Part shown: one piece after another, positions 54,437 through 61,176 of the stretch
Layout: the number at the start of each line of letters is the position of its first letter
Position numbering within the stretch: position 1 is the stretch's first letter
NCBI GenBank assembly: GCA_028291945.1
Contig: JAQGNH010000229.1
Location: 1 to 64,000 of the forward strand
Source of the DNA: Betaproteobacteria bacterium
GTDB lineage: Bacteria; Pseudomonadota; Gammaproteobacteria; Burkholderiales; SG8-41
Length of the DNA: 64,000 nucleotides
Direction of reading: 5' to 3'
Position numbers and translations under genes: made by a program
The notes under the pieces: generated by a model
Databases searched by the model: none
Told to the model about the DNA's origin: nothing
Seen by the model: the letters and a program-made list of their open reading frames with translations, nothing else

Positions 54437-55144
54437 GTGTCAGCCGTCCCGCGATACGCAACGGCAATACTGGCTTTGGCACTCGTTGCGCAGATCAGCT
54501 GGCAGGCTTCGGAACCGCAACCGATTGCGCGCGCAGCCGCTTTGGGCAAGCCGGCGGACGTTTCATGGCTTCGCGTGGTTTGTGATGGGGAACCGATTGG
54601 CCTCGCGCAGATGCTGGTGCTCTACCTGCAGGCATTTGACAACCAGCCGGGCGTCAGCATGCCTTTTAGGGCCTTGGACTACGGCGCTGTCGAGCAGTGG
54701 TTGAGTACCGTGATCGATCTGGATCCGTTCACCCAATACCCCATCATGCTGGCTGCGCAGGTCTATGCGCAGGTTCCGGATGAGCAAAGGCAGCGTCGAA
54801 TGCTGGATTTCGTGCACCGCGAATTTCTCCGCGACCCCGAAAGGCGCTGGCGCTGGCTCGCGCACGCTGCGATCATCGCCAAGCACCGGCTGAAAGACAT
54901 GCCCCTCGCTCTCGAGTATGCGGAAGACATCGCCCGCCACGCAAAGGGGGCGCTCGGGTGGGCGCGGCAAATGCGGATTTTCATCCTGGAAGATATGGGA
55001 GAAGTTGAAGCCGCTGCAGTACTGTTGGGCGGTTTGTTGGCGACTGGCGAAGTAACGGACAGTGCCGAGCTTCACTTCCTGACAGAGAGGCTCGAGGCGC
55101 TCAAAGGCGCCGAAAAATCGTCGAAACCGTCTGAGAATCGTTAG
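54437..55144 (+). CDS. hypothetical TPR-like protein between permease and pilin
   Basis: I do not recognise the family. The 235 aa protein from a GTG at 54437 has an N-terminal hydrophobic stretch (YATAILALALVAQISWQA) suggestive of a signal or anchor, then helical repeats such as RRMLDFVHREFLRDPERRWRWLAHAAIIAKHRLKDM and ALEYAEDIARHAKGALGWARQMRIFILEDMGEVEAAAVLLGGLL. It looks like a solenoid of about four helix pairs. No ribosome binding site is clear, and the start could be elsewhere up to 54402. It lies 35 bp after the permease, so they may be translationally linked. Confidence 0.65.
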   Translation: MSAVPRYATAILALALVAQISWQASEPQPIARAAALGKPADVSWLRVVCDGEPIGLAQMLVLYLQAFDNQPGVSMPFRALDYGAVEQWLSTVIDLDPFTQYPIMLAAQVYAQVPDEQRQRRMLDFVHREFLRDPERRWRWLAHAAIIAKHRLKDMPLALEYAEDIARHAKGALGWARQMRIFILEDMGEVEAAAVLLGGLLATGEVTDSAELHFLTERLEALKGAEKSSKPSENR

Positions 55145-55152
55145 CCAATGCG

Positions 55153-55181
55153 TTGTTCTGTTGAATCTCTACGGGTATTAT
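55153..55181 (+). promoter_or_regulatory. candidate sigma-70 promoter upstream of the pilin gene
   Basis: -35 TTGTTC (55153-55158) and -10 TATTAT (55176-55181) with a 17 bp spacer. The -10 matches five of six bases; the -35 three of six. Would start about 58 nt upstream of the pilin ATG, giving a longer leader than the sigma-54 site. Confidence 0.35.
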
Positions 55182-55193
55182 AGCCTCCAGCGC

Positions 55194-55210
55194 TTGGCAC
55201 AGTTCATGCA
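55194..55210 (+). promoter_or_regulatory. sigma-54 (RpoN) -24/-12 promoter of the pilin gene
   Basis: TTGGCACAGTTCATGCA: -24 GG (55196-55197) and -12 GC (55208-55209) are separated by exactly 10 bp, with TGGCAC matching the consensus upstream element fully. Only two positions differ from YTGGCACGRNNNTTGCW. Predicted start near 55221 leaves a 25 nt leader containing the GGGGGG ribosome binding region before the ATG at 55246. Confidence 0.7.
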
Positions 55211-55245
55211 GATGGCCAGCGAGTGTCACTTGGGGGGAACTGAAC

Positions 55246-55917
55246 ATGGGCAAGCGAGAATCGGGTTTTACGCTGATCGAGATTGCGATCGTGCTGGTGA
55301 TTATCGGGCTATTGTTGGGCGGCGTCCTCAAAGGCCAAGAACTGATTACAGGCGCCCGCGTGCGGAATTTCATCCAACAACAGGACGGGGTCAAAGCCGC
55401 GTATTTTGGATTTCTTGACCGCTACCGCGCGCTTCCCGGCGATTACCCCGGCGCGGTCGCGAATATTGCGAACATGTCGACAGCAGCGTGCGGCGGTGGT
55501 AATGGCAATGGGGACGGCAGCATCACGACGACCAATAACGAAAATATTCTCGTTTGGGAGCATCTATCGAGGTCGGGCTTCATCAATGGCACCTACACGT
55601 GTGCCGCTACGGCAAGTAGCACCACATCGCCCACCAATCCCTACGGCCAAGTTCTCAATCTAATTTTCGACGCGACATATCAGAGTCCGTCTGGCATTAC
55701 CAGCACGAGCCGCCACAATCTCCAAACGGGCACCAATGTTCCTTCCGACATCCTTGCAGAGGTTGACCGTAAAGTTGACGACGCTAATGCGTCGACAGGC
55801 TCTTTTCGCGGATCTGGTACGGCCGGCAGTTGCTGGTCAACTGTCGCTGGAACTACCTTTGGCGTCTGGGCGGCCGCGGCGCCGACGAATGCCTGTGCTG
55901 GCGCCACGCTTTTCTAG
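55246..55917 (+). CDS. type IV prepilin (canonical GFTLIE)
   Basis: Likely major or abundant pilin, 223 aa. Leader MGKRESG is cleaved before FTLIEIAIVLVIIGLLLGGVLKGQELI, a model N-methylated helix with Glu at +5. The globular part has paired cysteines (ACGG, TCAA, SCWS, ACAG) and Gly/Asn/Ser-rich loops. TTGGGGGGAACTGAAC supplies a strong ribosome binding site. A sigma-54 promoter lies 35 bp upstream and an intrinsic terminator follows, so it is probably a monocistronic, separately controlled gene, as major pilins usually are. Confidence 0.9.
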   Translation: MGKRESGFTLIEIAIVLVIIGLLLGGVLKGQELITGARVRNFIQQQDGVKAAYFGFLDRYRALPGDYPGAVANIANMSTAACGGGNGNGDGSITTTNNENILVWEHLSRSGFINGTYTCAATASSTTSPTNPYGQVLNLIFDATYQSPSGITSTSRHNLQTGTNVPSDILAEVDRKVDDANASTGSFRGSGTAGSCWSTVAGTTFGVWAAAAPTNACAGATLF

Positions 55918-55939
55918 CCTGAGTAGCGACCGTCTGCGA

Positions 55940-55961
55940 GAGCCACTTCGGTGGCTCTTTT
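55940..55961 (+). terminator. intrinsic terminator of the pilin gene
   Basis: GAGCCAC-TTCG-GTGGCTC stem of 7 bp with a stable UUCG tetraloop, followed immediately by TTTT. Begins 23 bp after the pilin stop. Confidence 0.9.
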
Positions 55962-56040
55962 CATTCTAGAAGATTTCATAAATATGCATTTCTTGACAAG
56001 GAGTTGCAGCAGCGGCCTGCGGCGGAAAAAACAGTCTTTC

Positions 56041-56049
56041 TGCTATAAT
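56041..56049 (+). promoter_or_regulatory. extended -10 promoter of kdsD (leaderless prediction)
   Basis: TGCTATAAT is a perfect TGn-TATAAT extended -10. The predicted start, seven bases after the hexamer, is 56056, which is the A of the kdsD ATG. No acceptable -35 hexamer lies 17 bp upstream, consistent with an extended -10 promoter, and no ribosome binding site precedes the ATG. Confidence 0.6.
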
Positions 56050-56055
56050 TGAATA

Positions 56056-57048
56056 ATGATCCAGGCTGTGCGCAAACCGGTTGTAGCCGACTCGATCGCA
56101 ATAGCGCGCGAAGTGCTTGAAATCGAGGCGAAGGCGATCACTGACCTCGTGGCGCGCATCGACGAGGGCTTCGCCAAGGCGGTGCGCATCGTGATGGACC
56201 GCCACGGTCGAGTCGTCGTCAGTGGCATGGGCAAGTCAGGTCATATCGCACGCAAGATTGCATCCACCCTGGCAAGCACCGGCACACCCGCTTTTTTTGT
56301 CCATCCCGCTGAAGCGAGTCACGGCGATCTTGGAATGGTCATGCGCGACGATGTGTTTATTGGTCTTTCGAATTCAGGCGAGAGCGGCGAACTGCTCGCC
56401 ATCGTGCCGTTGCTGAAACGCCAGGGTGCCAAGCTGATCGCCATGACCGGAAATCCGCTGTCCAGTCTGGCACGAGAAGCGGACGTACACCTGTACGCTG
56501 GCGCCGAAAAGGAAGCCTGCCCACTCAACCTGGCCCCCACGGCCAGTACTACGGCGGCACTGGCGCTCGGCGATGCGCTTGCCGTTGCGCTCATGCACGC
56601 TAAAGGCTTTACGCGCGACGAGTTCGCCCGCTCGCACCCCGGCGGCGCCTTGGGTCGGAAGCTCCTTACTCATGTGCGCGACGTGATGCGAACAGGAGAA
56701 AACGCGCCGCACATCAACGATTGTGCAACGGTGATGGACGCAATGCTGGAGATGTCGCGGGGACGTATGGGCATGACTGCGATACTCGACCAGAACGAGC
56801 GGGTGATCGGCATATTCACCGACGGCGACCTGAGGCGTACACTCGAAAAAGGAGGCGACTTGCGCACGACCGGTGTCAAGGAAGTCATGCGCCCCGGGCC
56901 ACGGACCATCGGGCCTGAACGCCTCGCCGCGGAAGCGGTCGAAATCATGGAGCGCTACAAGGTGAACCAGCTGCTCGTGGTCGACGACAAAAAGCGGCTG
57001 TTGGGAGCGCTTAACATGCACGATCTATTCAGAGCGAAGGTCATTTGA
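56056..57048 (+). CDS. kdsD: arabinose-5-phosphate isomerase (KpsF/KdsD)
   Basis: Converts ribulose-5-phosphate to arabinose-5-phosphate for Kdo synthesis. 330 aa: SIS domain (about 40-190, VVVSGMGKSGHIARKIASTLASTGTPAFFVHPAEASHGDLGM with catalytic His) and two CBS domains (about 210-265 and 280-330, VIGIFTDGDLRRTLEKGG and NQLLVVDDKKRLLGALNMHDL). The ATG at 56056 follows an extended -10 directly, so translation may be leaderless. First gene of the Kdo/LPS export cluster. Confidence 0.96.
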   Translation: MIQAVRKPVVADSIAIAREVLEIEAKAITDLVARIDEGFAKAVRIVMDRHGRVVVSGMGKSGHIARKIASTLASTGTPAFFVHPAEASHGDLGMVMRDDVFIGLSNSGESGELLAIVPLLKRQGAKLIAMTGNPLSSLAREADVHLYAGAEKEACPLNLAPTASTTAALALGDALAVALMHAKGFTRDEFARSHPGGALGRKLLTHVRDVMRTGENAPHINDCATVMDAMLEMSRGRMGMTAILDQNERVIGIFTDGDLRRTLEKGGDLRTTGVKEVMRPGPRTIGPERLAAEAVEIMERYKVNQLLVVDDKKRLLGALNMHDLFRAKVI

Positions 57049-57120
57049 CTCGCCCCGTTACGGCATTGCCAGTCTGCGCCTTGCAGTCTGCACCTGATCC
57101 TCTGCATCGTCCCTGATCCC

Positions 57121-57645
57121 ATGGACGATGTGTACTTGAAAGCGAGACCGATCAGACTCGCAATCTTTGACGTTGATGGCATCCTGACCGACGGTGGTCT
57201 GTACTACAGTGACAGCGGTGAAGAAACCAAAGTATTTGACGTGCGCGACGGCCATGGAATGAAAATGCTGCAGGCGAGTGGTGTCGCGCTCGCGATCATC
57301 ACCAGTCGGCAGTCCCGTTGCGTGGCGCGGCGAGCGGAGAATCTCGGCATCGAACTTGTCTTTCAGGGTGTCGAGAACAAGCTCGGCGCGTTCCACGCGC
57401 TCACGGCACAGCTCGCAGTCGAGCCGTCGGCTTGCGCTTACATGGGAGACGACTGGGTCGACTTACCCGTGCTTATGCGTTGCGGACTCGCTTTGTCGGT
57501 GCCCGAGGCGCCGGCCGTTGTGCGTCAGCGCGTGCATTATGTGACGCGCGCAAGCGGCGGCCGTGGCGCTGCGCGCGAAGCATGCGAGCTCATAATGCAG
57601 GCGCAGGGTACGTTCGAATCGCGGCTCTCGGTCTTTCTCACCTGA
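57121..57645 (+). CDS. kdsC: 3-deoxy-D-manno-octulosonate 8-phosphate phosphatase
   Basis: HAD-family phosphatase removing phosphate from Kdo-8-P, 174 aa. LAIFDVDGILTDGGLYY carries the nucleophile DxD motif, IITSRQS the second HAD motif, and YMGDDWVDLPVL the metal-binding GDD. ALAIITSRQSRCVARRAENLG fits KdsC closely. It follows kdsD by 72 bp in the usual kdsD-kdsC-lptC order. Confidence 0.96.
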   Translation: MDDVYLKARPIRLAIFDVDGILTDGGLYYSDSGEETKVFDVRDGHGMKMLQASGVALAIITSRQSRCVARRAENLGIELVFQGVENKLGAFHALTAQLAVEPSACAYMGDDWVDLPVLMRCGLALSVPEAPAVVRQRVHYVTRASGGRGAAREACELIMQAQGTFESRLSVFLT

Positions 57646-57667: not shown

Positions 57668-58261
57668 ATGAGCGACCGCTTCGGTGGCTGGTTTCCCCTT
57701 GTGCTGCTTGCGGTTCTCAGCGCACTGACTTTCTGGCTCGACCGCCTAGTCCAGCCTGCCGTCGGACCGCAATCGGATGCCGTCAAACACGATCCTGATT
57801 ACATCGTCGACGGATTGAACGCCTTGCGCATGGATCCGCAGGGACGCGTGAAACATACCCTGCGTGCGCTGAAAATGACCCATTTCCCTGACGACGACAT
57901 TACCTTGCTGCGCGAGCCGAAGCTGGTTGCGTACTCAGAAGGTCACCCCCCCGTGACAGTCACCTCCCGCCGTGCGCGGGTATCCGGCAACGGTGAGGAC
58001 GTGTACTTCGAAGACCAGGTGCGCGTCGTCCGCTCGGCCGACGCACAGCAGAGCGAGCTCGTGCTCGAAACAAACTATCTGCACGTCATTCCCGACGACA
58101 ACGTGGCGAAGACCGACCAAGCCGTAAGGATCACTACCGACGGCACTGTCGTTACGGCTTCTGGCTTAGAATTGAACAGTGACACGCGCGTACTCAACCT
58201 GCAAGGTCGAGTCAAGAGCACTTATGACCGCGCCACCGCGGCGCCACGAAATGCGCCTTGA
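57668..58261 (+). CDS. lptC: LPS export system protein LptC
   Basis: Bitopic protein linking the LptBFG transporter to LptA. N-terminal helix FPLVLLAVLSALTFWLDRLV (about 8-27), then the periplasmic OstA-like beta-jellyroll: DPDYIVDGLNALRMDPQGRVKHTLRALKMTHFPDDD and [19 protein letters not shown]. 197 aa. It overlaps the lptA gene. Confidence 0.92.
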   Translation: MSDRFGGWFPLVLLAVLSALTFWLDRLVQPAVGPQSDAVKHDPDYIVDGLNALRMDPQGRVKHTLRALKMTHFPDDDITLLREPKLVAYSEGHPPVTVTSRRARVSGNGEDVYFEDQVRVVRSADAQQSELVLETNYLHVIPDDNVAKTDQAVRITTDGTVVTASGLELNSDTRVLNLQGRVKSTYDRATAAPRNAP

Positions 58262-58874
58262 TCGGATAGGGATCGCGTTGCGTAGCGCCGTCGTCGTCAT
58301 CGCCTTGTCGCTTATGGCCGCCGTTCCAGCGCATGCCGACAAATCCGATCGCGACAAGCCGATAAACCTCGAAGCGGACCGTGTAACCGTCGACGACGCA
58401 AAGCAGATTGCCACGTTCACCGGCGCCGTCGTTCTGACGCAGGGCACGATGATCCTGCGCGGAGATCGCATGGAAGTCCGCCAGGACAAGACGGGGTTCA
58501 AGCAAGGCACGACCTGGGGCAATCTCGCGTACTTTCGGCAGAAGCGCGAAGGCTATGACGACTTCATAGAGGGTTGGGCCGAGCGCATCGAATATGACAG
58601 CCGTGCGGACAAAGTGCAGATGTTCGATCGCGCGATGTTGAAGCGCGGCCAGGATGAGGTGCGCGGCAGCTACATTTCTTATGATGTCGGCACTGAATTT
58701 TTCCAGGTGACTGGCGGTCCGACGAAGTCGGCCACGGGGCGGCCCGGCGACGGCCGCGTGCGCGCCATCATGCAGCCTACTTCGAAGGACAAGGCCGCTG
58801 CACCGCCAGCCGTACCGCTGAAACCGGACGGTGGATCAGACGTTCAACGCGGAGAAGCTGGTGCCGCGAGGTAA
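58224..58874 (+). CDS. lptA: periplasmic LPS-binding protein LptA
   Basis: Periplasmic bridge protein of the LPS exporter. From the ATG at 58224 (AAGAG upstream) it is 216 aa with signal [21 protein letters not shown]; the ATG at 58251 is a shorter option, and the track start at 58179 too long. The OstA fold is evident in [46 protein letters not shown] Pro/Ala-rich C-terminal tail (about 190-216) is longer than in enterics. Overlaps lptC at its 5' end. Confidence 0.92.
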
Positions 58875-58932
58875 CATTGCCGCACGAGAAATTGGCCCGC
58901 TCGGGATAACGGACGAGCCGGCATCGAGCGCC

Positions 58933-59664
58933 GTGGCGCATGTCAGCGTGCTTCGCGCGCAAAATCTCAAAAAGCGTTACCGGTCGCGCGTAGTCGTTAA
59001 AGATGTGTCGCTCGATGTTCGCAGCGGGGAAGTCATCGGGCTGCTCGGGCCGAACGGTGCAGGAAAAACCACTTGCTTTTACATGATGGTGGGGCTCGTC
59101 GCGATGGACGGCGGAGAGCTCGAACTCGACGGGGAACGACTCACGCACATGCCCATACACGCACGGGCACTGCGCGGTTTGAGCTACCTGCCGCAGGAAG
59201 CTTCGATCTTCAGGCGGCTTTCGGTCGGTGACAACATCAGGGCAGTCCTGGAGCTGCACGAACGCGACTCGGGCGCCCTCGAGCTCAAGCTGGACGACCT
59301 GCTACGGGAGCTGCACATCAGCCACCTGCGCGACAATCCGGCCATCGCCCTTTCCGGCGGTGAGCGGCGGCGAGTGGAAATCGCCCGCGCGCTGGCAACG
59401 GAGCCGCGATTCATACTTCTGGACGAGCCATTTGCAGGGGTCGACCCCATTGCCGTCCTGGAAATACAGAAGATAATCAAGTTCCTGAAGGCGCGCGGCA
59501 TCGGGGTGATCATTACCGATCACAATGTGAGAGAAACGCTGGGAATCTGCGACAGGGCGTACATTATTAACGACGGTTCGGTGCTCGCCTACGGCAAGCC
59601 CGAGGAGATCGTCTATAATGACAGTGTAAGAAAGGTCTATCTGGGAGAGCACTTCCGTCTGTGA
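58933..59664 (+). CDS. lptB: LPS export ABC transporter ATPase LptB
   Basis: Cytoplasmic ATPase of the LptBFG extractor. Walker [10 protein letters not shown], signature [15 protein letters not shown], Walker [14 protein letters not shown] and switch His in [10 protein letters not shown] are intact; [24 protein letters not shown] is the characteristic LptB Q-loop region. I chose the GTG at 58933 (243 aa, the normal length) over the track GTG at 58831, which would overlap lptA by 44 bp and add 34 residues unlike LptB. lptF and lptG are not in the window. Confidence 0.95.
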
Positions 59665-59733: not shown

Positions 59734-61176
59734 ATGAAGCACTCCCTCCAACTCCGCCTATCTCAGCACCTAACCCTTACCCCGCAGCTGCAGCAGTCCA
59801 TTCGGCTGCTTCAGCTTTCGACGCTGGAGCTCAACCAGGAATTGGAGCGGTTTCTGCAGGACAATCCCCTGCTGGAGCGGGATGAAGGCGCCGGCGAGCA
59901 GCTTGGCATTCCGCCGGGCCTGAACGGCGAGTCAGGGCCGGGCGAACGCGCAGCGGAAGCGAATACTGCCGGCAACGACGACAACCCGGTGCAGCCTGAA
60001 GGTGATGCCTTCACGAGCGCACAGGATGCGCCTTACGGCAGCGGCGGACGCGAAGACGGCGACGACGATGATTACCCTCAGGTTGCCGCCGAAAACCCGA
60101 CGCTGCGCAATCACCTCATCATGCAGCTTTCGCTCAAGAAGCTGTCCGAGCGCGACCGCACGCTCGTCACACTGCTGATCGAGTCGCTCGACGAGGACGG
60201 TTATCTTTCGCAGGACCTGGCAGAGATCCACGCTATGCTCCCCGAAGAAATCGGCGTGGAACCCGAGGAGCTGCAGATCGCGCTCAAACACCTGCAGCAC
60301 TTCGAGCCCACTGGCGTCGGTGCGCGCAATCTGGGTGACTGCCTGGCTTTGCAGCTCACGGCTCTTCCCGAGTCGACGCTTTTCCGGACTGAGGCGCTCG
60401 ACGTCGTGCGCAATCACCTCGAAGCGCTGGCCTCGCGCGACTTTACGCGCCTGAAAAAAATCCTTCGCTGTGACGACGCTTGTCTGCGCGAGGTACAGAA
60501 GCTCATCACGAGCCTCAATCCACGGCCGGGGCGTGAGTATTCGTCCGAGGACACGCGCTATGTCGTGCCTGATGTGGTCGTTCGCAAAGTTAAGGGTGTG
60601 TGGGTTGCGTCGCTGAATCCGGAGGCGATGCCCAAGCTGCGCATCAACCGGCTCTACGCGGACATTCTCTCGCGTGCGCGAAGCTCGGGATCTCAGCAGC
60701 TTGCCACTCAGTTGCAGGAAGCGAAATGGCTCATCAAGAATGTCCAGCAACGTTTCGACACGATATTGCGAGTCGCCCAGGCGATCGTCGACCGGCAGCG
60801 CCATTTTTACGAGCACGGTGAAGTAGCCATGCGCCCGCTCGTCCTGCGCGAAATTGCGGAAGCGCTCGACCTGCACGAGTCGACAGTGTCTCGCGTGACA
60901 ACCCAAAAGTTCATGCATACGCCCCGCGGCATATTCGAGCTCAAGTATTTCTTTGGCAGCCACGTCACGACCGAGAGCGGCGGCTCGGCCTCGAGTACCG
61001 CGATTCGCGCGCTGATCAAACAGCTCGTAAGTGCAGAGAATTCGCGCAAGCCCTTGAGCGACAGCCAGATTTCAGAGATTCTGGGCCAGCAAGGCATCGT
61101 AGTGGCGCGTCGAACCGTAGCGAAGTACCGCGAGTCGCTGCAGATCCTGCCCGTGAACCTGCGCAAAACCCTTTAA
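59734..61176 (+). CDS. rpoN: RNA polymerase sigma-54 factor
   Basis: Alternative sigma factor for nitrogen, pilin and other genes. 480 aa: region I ([44 protein letters not shown]), acidic region II ([11 protein letters not shown]), core-binding region III, HTH, and the RpoN box [10 protein letters not shown] near the C-terminus. Region order and length are normal. Sits after lptB and before hpf, its usual place in proteobacteria. The activator at 36249 and pilin promoter at 55194 may use it. Confidence 0.97.

What the first reader, a model, noticed from the sequence alone, without database searches (positions are those of the whole stretch)
56041..56058. Predicted leaderless transcript for kdsD
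TGCTATAAT (perfect extended -10) ends exactly seven bases before the A of the kdsD ATG, no ribosome binding site precedes the ATG, and the upstream pilin terminator isolates the gene. This would make the first gene of the Kdo/LPS cluster leaderless, unusual in proteobacteria.
Basis: seen in the sequence. Interest (0 to 1): 0.5.

Follow-up and report, generated by a model that had tools for sequence, protein, structure and literature searches.

The report
Conserved leaderless promoter of kdsD operon
The first gene of a betaproteobacterial LPS-building operon has its promoter so close to the start codon that its mRNA should begin at, or within a few bases of, the AUG, and the same layout recurs in most of the Burkholderiales sampled, so it is very probably a real, selected way of starting this gene.

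Summary
TGCTATAAT (56041-56049) lies 6 nt upstream of the kdsD ATG (56056), with an in-frame stop (56050), no Shine-Dalgarno near the ATG and a strong terminator at 55938-55959. In the window alone the motif is weak evidence (0.62 TGNTATAMT expected by chance). Comparison decides it. Of 177 Burkholderiales kdsD loci, 154 have a TATA(A/C)T-like hexamer 4-10 nt before an ATG, and 152 of those ATGs are in frame with kdsD. Spacing is sharply 6-9 nt, none of the 152 has a Shine-Dalgarno, no -35 is conserved, and the canonical start positions just before the ATG are depleted of purines. 31 of 49 sampled families show it, against 3 of 41 other gammaproteobacterial loci (chance level). The window's own genome shows no general excess of this spacing. 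I conclude that an extended -10 promoter makes a leaderless or near-leaderless (about 0-4 nt) mRNA for the kdsD-kdsC-lptCAB-rpoN cluster. 'Unusual in proteobacteria' is only partly right: published maps report leaderless mRNAs in Burkholderia and Cupriavidus. No paper I found links kdsD to leaderless initiation. No RNA data were available for this gene.

The parts
55938..55959 (+). intrinsic terminator (GAGAGCCAC-UUCG-GUGGCUCUU) after the upstream pilin-like gene
   Evidence: 9-pair stem, -14.8 kcal/mol, z -4.05; followed by a T-rich tail
56041..56049 (+). extended -10 promoter element TGCTATAAT
   Evidence: a TGNTATAMT-type element lies 6-11 nt before an in-frame ATG in the 30 sampled loci of the window's family, window included
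56050..56055 (+). discriminator, 6 nt (TGAATA); contains an in-frame TGA that rules out an upstream in-frame start
56056..56056 (+). predicted transcription start = A of the kdsD AUG (inferred, 0-4 nt uncertainty)
   Evidence: spacing; purine depletion just before the ATG across 81 non-redundant homologues
56056..57048 (+). kdsD, KpsF/GutQ-family arabinose-5-phosphate isomerase, 330 aa
   Evidence: TIGR00393 370.8 bits (cut-off 203.7); KdsD model NF008141 406.5 bits (below its 505 equivalog cut-off)
57121..57645 (+). kdsC, downstream gene, presumably co-transcribed
   Evidence: TIGR01670 166 bits (cut-off 106.95)
57668..58261 (+). lptC
   Evidence: TIGR04409 165 bits (cut-off 38)
58251..58874 (+). 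lptA (start chosen at the in-frame ATG overlapping the lptC stop)
   Evidence: TIGR03002 156.6 bits (cut-off 71.7)
58831..59664 (+). lptB (open frame as listed; the true start is uncertain)
   Evidence: TIGR04406 376.4 bits (cut-off 240), matching residues 41-277
59734..61176 (+). rpoN (sigma-54)
   Evidence: NF004598 718.5 bits (cut-off 621)
55984..56052 (+). 22-codon in-frame mini-ORF ending 3 nt before the kdsD ATG; considered as a rival coupling device, probably spurious
   Evidence: not seen in same-genus L083/L084

Best explanation
The kdsD gene is transcribed by the housekeeping sigma-70 RNA polymerase from an extended -10 promoter (TGnTATAMT, no conserved -35) placed 6-9 bp before the ATG. 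RNA starts at the A of the AUG or a few nt before it, so the mRNA has no room for a Shine-Dalgarno and is translated by the leaderless route (70S binding to a 5'-terminal AUG). The transcript presumably continues into kdsC-lptC-lptA-lptB and perhaps rpoN. The layout is widespread in Burkholderiales and parsimoniously old there, with scattered lineages lacking it. Shown here: sequence, spacing, frame, absence of SD, breadth. Inferred: the 5' end, the translation route, co-transcription, ancestry.
For:: 154 of 177 Burkholderiales kdsD loci carry a TATAMT-like hexamer 4-10 nt before an ATG; 152 of 154 of those ATGs are in frame with kdsD (1/3 expected; binomial p about 1e-69, loci not independent). 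Of 81 non-redundant upstream regions, 79 have a gap of 6-9 nt and only one is shorter than 6, as expected if the AUG must lie inside the transcript; with a start rule that ignores the -10, 39 of 65 loci outside the window's family qualify against a shuffle mean of 2.7 (maximum 9); 67 of 80 genome-contig loci against 2.1; other gammaproteobacteria 3 of 41 against 1.3. SD-like tetramers in 0 of 152 kdsD starts, but in 26-50% of kdsC, lptC, lptA and lptB starts at the same loci; at gap 8 the canonical +7 position is 93% pyrimidine and A is nearly absent between it and the ATG, so the A of ATG is the first good initiating purine; no genome-wide excess of this spacing in the window's genome (25 against 29 at a control spacing); kdsD is the only one of the 25 with the TG extension. 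Independent check of the geometry: C. metallidurans rpoN is reported leaderless (PMC7563307), and Cupriavidus rpoN starts in my loci read TAAAAT-N7-ATG.
Against: Gaps of 8-9 nt, and 10-11 in the window's own genus (L083, L092), allow a leader of 1-5 nt. 18 of 49 sampled families lack the layout by the criterion used, and the tree needs at least 21 changes with many weak branches. The N. gonorrhoeae map names only three leaderless mRNAs, none of them kdsD (PMC4176332). Promoter activity is inferred from sequence.
Confidence: 0.83

Rival explanations
1. Near-leaderless with a short leader: the promoter is real, but RNA starts 1-5 nt upstream of the AUG, and this short tail rather than a strict 5'-AUG is what ribosomes use. 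(This overlaps the best explanation, which allows 0-4 nt.)
For: Many gaps are 7-9 nt and the window's genus has 10-11 nt; TSS selection downstream of a -10 is often spread over several positions (general knowledge).
Against: Purines are depleted at the positions where such starts would fall; the window itself has the 6-nt gap that puts +1 on the A.
Confidence: 0.3
2. kdsD is mainly expressed from a promoter further upstream and translated by coupling to the 22-codon mini-ORF (55984-56052) that ends 3 nt before its ATG.
For: The mini-ORF is in frame and ends TGA-ATA-ATG.
Against: The mini-ORF is not seen in same-genus L083/L084; a strong terminator lies just upstream; no TTGACA/TATAAT-type promoter was found at 55000-57500; it does not account for the conserved -10 spacing.
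Confidence: 0.06
3. The true kdsD start codon is downstream and the ATG at 56056 lies in a normal leader.
For: An in-frame GTG lies 4 codons downstream and the first ~12 codons are poorly conserved.
Against: 152 of 154 motif-linked ATGs are in frame and open to the core; in many relatives no other ATG lies between this ATG and the conserved core.
Confidence: 0.05
4. Chance: an AT-rich hexamer near an ATG without promoter function.
For: In the window alone the motif is expected 0.62 times by chance.
Against: Order-wide conservation of sequence, spacing and frame.
Confidence: 0.02

Closest known systems
Leaderless mRNAs mapped by dRNA-seq in Burkholderia cenocepacia J2315 (PMC4603805) and Cupriavidus metallidurans CH34 (PMC7563307)
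   Same: Same order; TA-rich promoter motif directly upstream of the start codon in place of a Shine-Dalgarno (stated for B. cenocepacia); C. metallidurans rpoN is listed as leaderless
   Different: Those sets are enriched for transcriptional regulators (plus replication/repair genes in C. metallidurans); the readable text names neither kdsD nor LPS genes as leaderless, and conservation across the order was not seen to be examined there
'-10 region adjacent to ORF' leaderless expression pattern in Deinococcus-Thermus (PMC12340547)
   Same: -10 motif adjacent to the ORF gives a leaderless mRNA
   Different: There it is a common, phylum-wide mode of expression; here the window's genome shows no genome-wide excess and the feature is tied to one orthologous gene
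Predicted leaderless genes by TIS-upstream signals (Zheng et al. 2011, PMC3160421)
   Same: Same signal logic; 9 of 71 betaproteobacterial genomes were predicted to have leaderless genes (average 6.8% of genes)
   Different: Genome-level statistics, no orthologue-level case for kdsD

Membership tests
Leaderless (or near-leaderless) gene | -10 element spaced so that +1 falls at or within a few nt of the start codon | tested here: met
   6-nt gap in the window; 79 of 81 non-redundant homologues at 6-9 nt
Leaderless (or near-leaderless) gene | no Shine-Dalgarno upstream of the start | tested here: met
   0 of 152 kdsD starts
Leaderless (or near-leaderless) gene | AUG start codon | tested here: met
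   ATG in the window. The homologue search required ATG, so it cannot test this by itself; but among Burkholderiales loci without the motif only L120 and L202 have no in-frame ATG near the expected start
Leaderless (or near-leaderless) gene | 5' end of the mRNA mapped at 0-5 nt from the start codon | not testable with these tools
   needs 5' RACE or Cappable-seq, or the supplementary TSS tables of PMC4603805 / PMC7563307
Extended -10 sigma-70 promoter | TGn directly upstream of TATAAT | tested here: met
   window TGCTATAAT; G at the -2 position in 75% of 81 non-redundant homologues, full TG in 46 of 81
Extended -10 sigma-70 promoter | no requirement for a -35 hexamer | tested here: met
   no position from -40 to -6 relative to the hexamer exceeds 0.11 bits
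KdsD / KpsF-GutQ arabinose-5-phosphate isomerase | protein matching the family model above cut-off | tested here: met
   TIGR00393 370.8 bits against cut-off 203.7; the KdsD equivalog cut-off (505) is not reached (406.5), so 'kdsD' rests also on its place before kdsC-lptCAB

The most novel reading that the evidence does not exclude
Leaderless initiation of kdsD is an ancient, selected trait of Burkholderiales that ties the first gene of the Kdo/LPS-export operon to the state of the translation machinery (free 70S, IF2/IF3, initiator tRNA), and so acts as a regulatory device for envelope synthesis rather than an accident of promoter position.
Probability: 0.3. Interest if true: 0.75.

Novelty: new member of a known kind. 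Interest (0 to 1): 0.5.

Why it matters
Leaderless genes in Gram-negative bacteria are usually treated as scattered oddities or as regulators. A pathway gene whose leaderless layout is kept across most of an order gives a clean natural system for asking why leaderless initiation is retained, and it makes testable whether LPS supply responds to ribosome state. It also allows start sites of kdsD to be set correctly in many genomes.

Tried and rejected
Papers joining 'leaderless' with kdsD, kpsF or arabinose-5-phosphate isomerase: none. TTGACA at 55993-55998 as a -35: 45 nt from the TATAAT, and no partner -10 was found by the scan. Mini-ORF coupling: not conserved in same-genus relatives. Structure at the mRNA 5' end: z 0.39 and 0.28, nothing unusual; the first nine bases are unpaired in the predicted fold. 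Gammaproteobacterial kdsD as a wider home of the trait: at chance level. Gain or loss polarity on the tree: 21 changes at least, backbone poorly supported, so ancestry is only suggested.

Full report
Observation. The sequence is as described: TGCTATAAT at 56041-56049, then TGAATA, then the kdsD ATG at 56056. An in-frame TGA at 56050 means no upstream in-frame start is possible. The only SD-like run, AAGGAG (55998-56003), is too far away. A strong terminator follows the upstream pilin-like gene. In the window alone the motif would be expected 0.62 times by chance, so the single case proves little; the exact string occurs once in the 7.1-Mb genome.

The gene. The 330-aa product matches the KpsF/GutQ family well above cut-off, with KdsD as the best equivalog though below that equivalog's own cut-off. 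Its place before kdsC, lptC, lptA, lptB and rpoN fits KdsD; PMC3162934 describes kdsCD and lptABC as conserved neighbours of rpoN.

Comparison. The window comes from an uncultured Burkholderiales family. I collected kdsD loci from genome contigs (80 loci), relatives, the order and the class, fetching further upstream regions. Printed upstream regions show TATACT or TATAAT a few bases before the ATG in Paraburkholderia, Caballeronia, Cupriavidus, Polynucleobacter, Janthinobacterium, Undibacterium, Comamonadaceae (TAAAAT) and nearly all members of the window's family.

Statistics. With a start rule that ignores the -10 (last ATG before the conserved core), 24 of 29 loci of the window's family, 39 of 65 from other families and 67 of 80 genome-contig loci have the hexamer 4-9 nt before the ATG; dinucleotide shuffles give 0.6, 2.7 and 2.1. 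Other gammaproteobacteria give 3 of 41 against 1.3. Allowing any ATG in any frame, 154 of 177 loci have the arrangement and 152 of the ATGs are in frame with kdsD. Loci are related, so the p-value overstates independence; after reduction to 81 upstream regions below 65% identity, 79 have a gap of 6-9 nt. At family level 31 of 49 show it.

Anatomy. There is no conserved -35 (all positions from -40 to -6 at most 0.11 bits), while T, T and G upstream of the hexamer are enriched, as in an extended -10. SD-like tetramers occur in 0 of 152 kdsD starts but in 26-50% of kdsC, lptC, lptA and lptB starts at the same loci. The gap has a sharp lower edge at 6 nt, which is what a requirement for the whole AUG in the transcript predicts. 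Bases just before the ATG are C-rich; at gap 8 the canonical start position is 93% pyrimidine. So the A of the ATG is the likely first nucleotide.

Is kdsD special in this genome? Yes by pattern: TATAMT at 6-8 nt from an ATG occurs 25 times, at a control spacing 29 times, and only kdsD among the 25 has the TG extension. Gene-level statistics could not be made, because the whole genome was not available as a file.

External support. dRNA-seq in B. cenocepacia reports 114 leaderless transcripts (24 tRNAs) with the TA-rich promoter motif directly upstream of such genes (PMC4603805). C. metallidurans has 4.67% leaderless primary TSSs, rpoN among them (PMC7563307); Cupriavidus rpoN starts in my loci have TAAAAT 7 nt before the ATG, so the geometry used here agrees with a measured case. 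In Neisseria gonorrhoeae only three leaderless mRNAs are named, not kdsD (PMC4176332), so the trait is probably not universal in betaproteobacteria.

Evolution. On a KdsD tree of 105 rows the layout appears in all larger Burkholderiales branches, with lineages lacking it scattered among them, at least 21 changes and weak backbone support. An old trait with repeated loss is the simplest picture, but it is not proven.

Mechanism. Leaderless mRNAs are translated mainly by 70S ribosomes binding a 5'-terminal AUG, with AUG strongly preferred in E. coli and Caulobacter (review PMC9031893). Under this reading kdsD would respond to ribosome and initiation-factor state differently from SD-led genes. 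That functional consequence is inference.

Limits. No 5' end was measured; supplementary TSS tables could not be opened; start codons were chosen by rule; taxon codes are unnamed for the order and class samples. Gaps of 10-11 nt in the window's own genus (L083, L092) leave room for a short leader there.

Noticed in passing
window 59734 (rpoN start) and related loci, e.g. L024, L031, L073: rpoN starts at these betaproteobacterial loci are all ATG, almost never SD-led (2 of 49), and 12 of 49 have a -10-like hexamer 6-9 nt upstream; Cupriavidus has TAAAAT-N7-ATG, matching its reported leaderless mRNA in C. metallidurans.
   Followed up: partly
window 55246-55917 and L083 (pilin-like ORFs, complement strand): A pilin-like gene (prepilin N-terminal motif) sits just upstream of kdsD in the window and in a same-genus genome, which appears to carry more than one related copy.
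   Followed up: no
Paraburkholderia, Caballeronia, Cupriavidus, Pandoraea and Polynucleobacter loci, kdsD codons 1-3: The first codons are strikingly alike at DNA level (ATGATAGC), apparently more so than the codons that follow; possibly selection on the leaderless 5' end.
   Followed up: no
L006, L085, L090, L094, L096, L097 and other loci of the window's family: A GAATTGCAA-like motif recurs about 30-40 nt upstream of the -10; role unknown.
   Followed up: no
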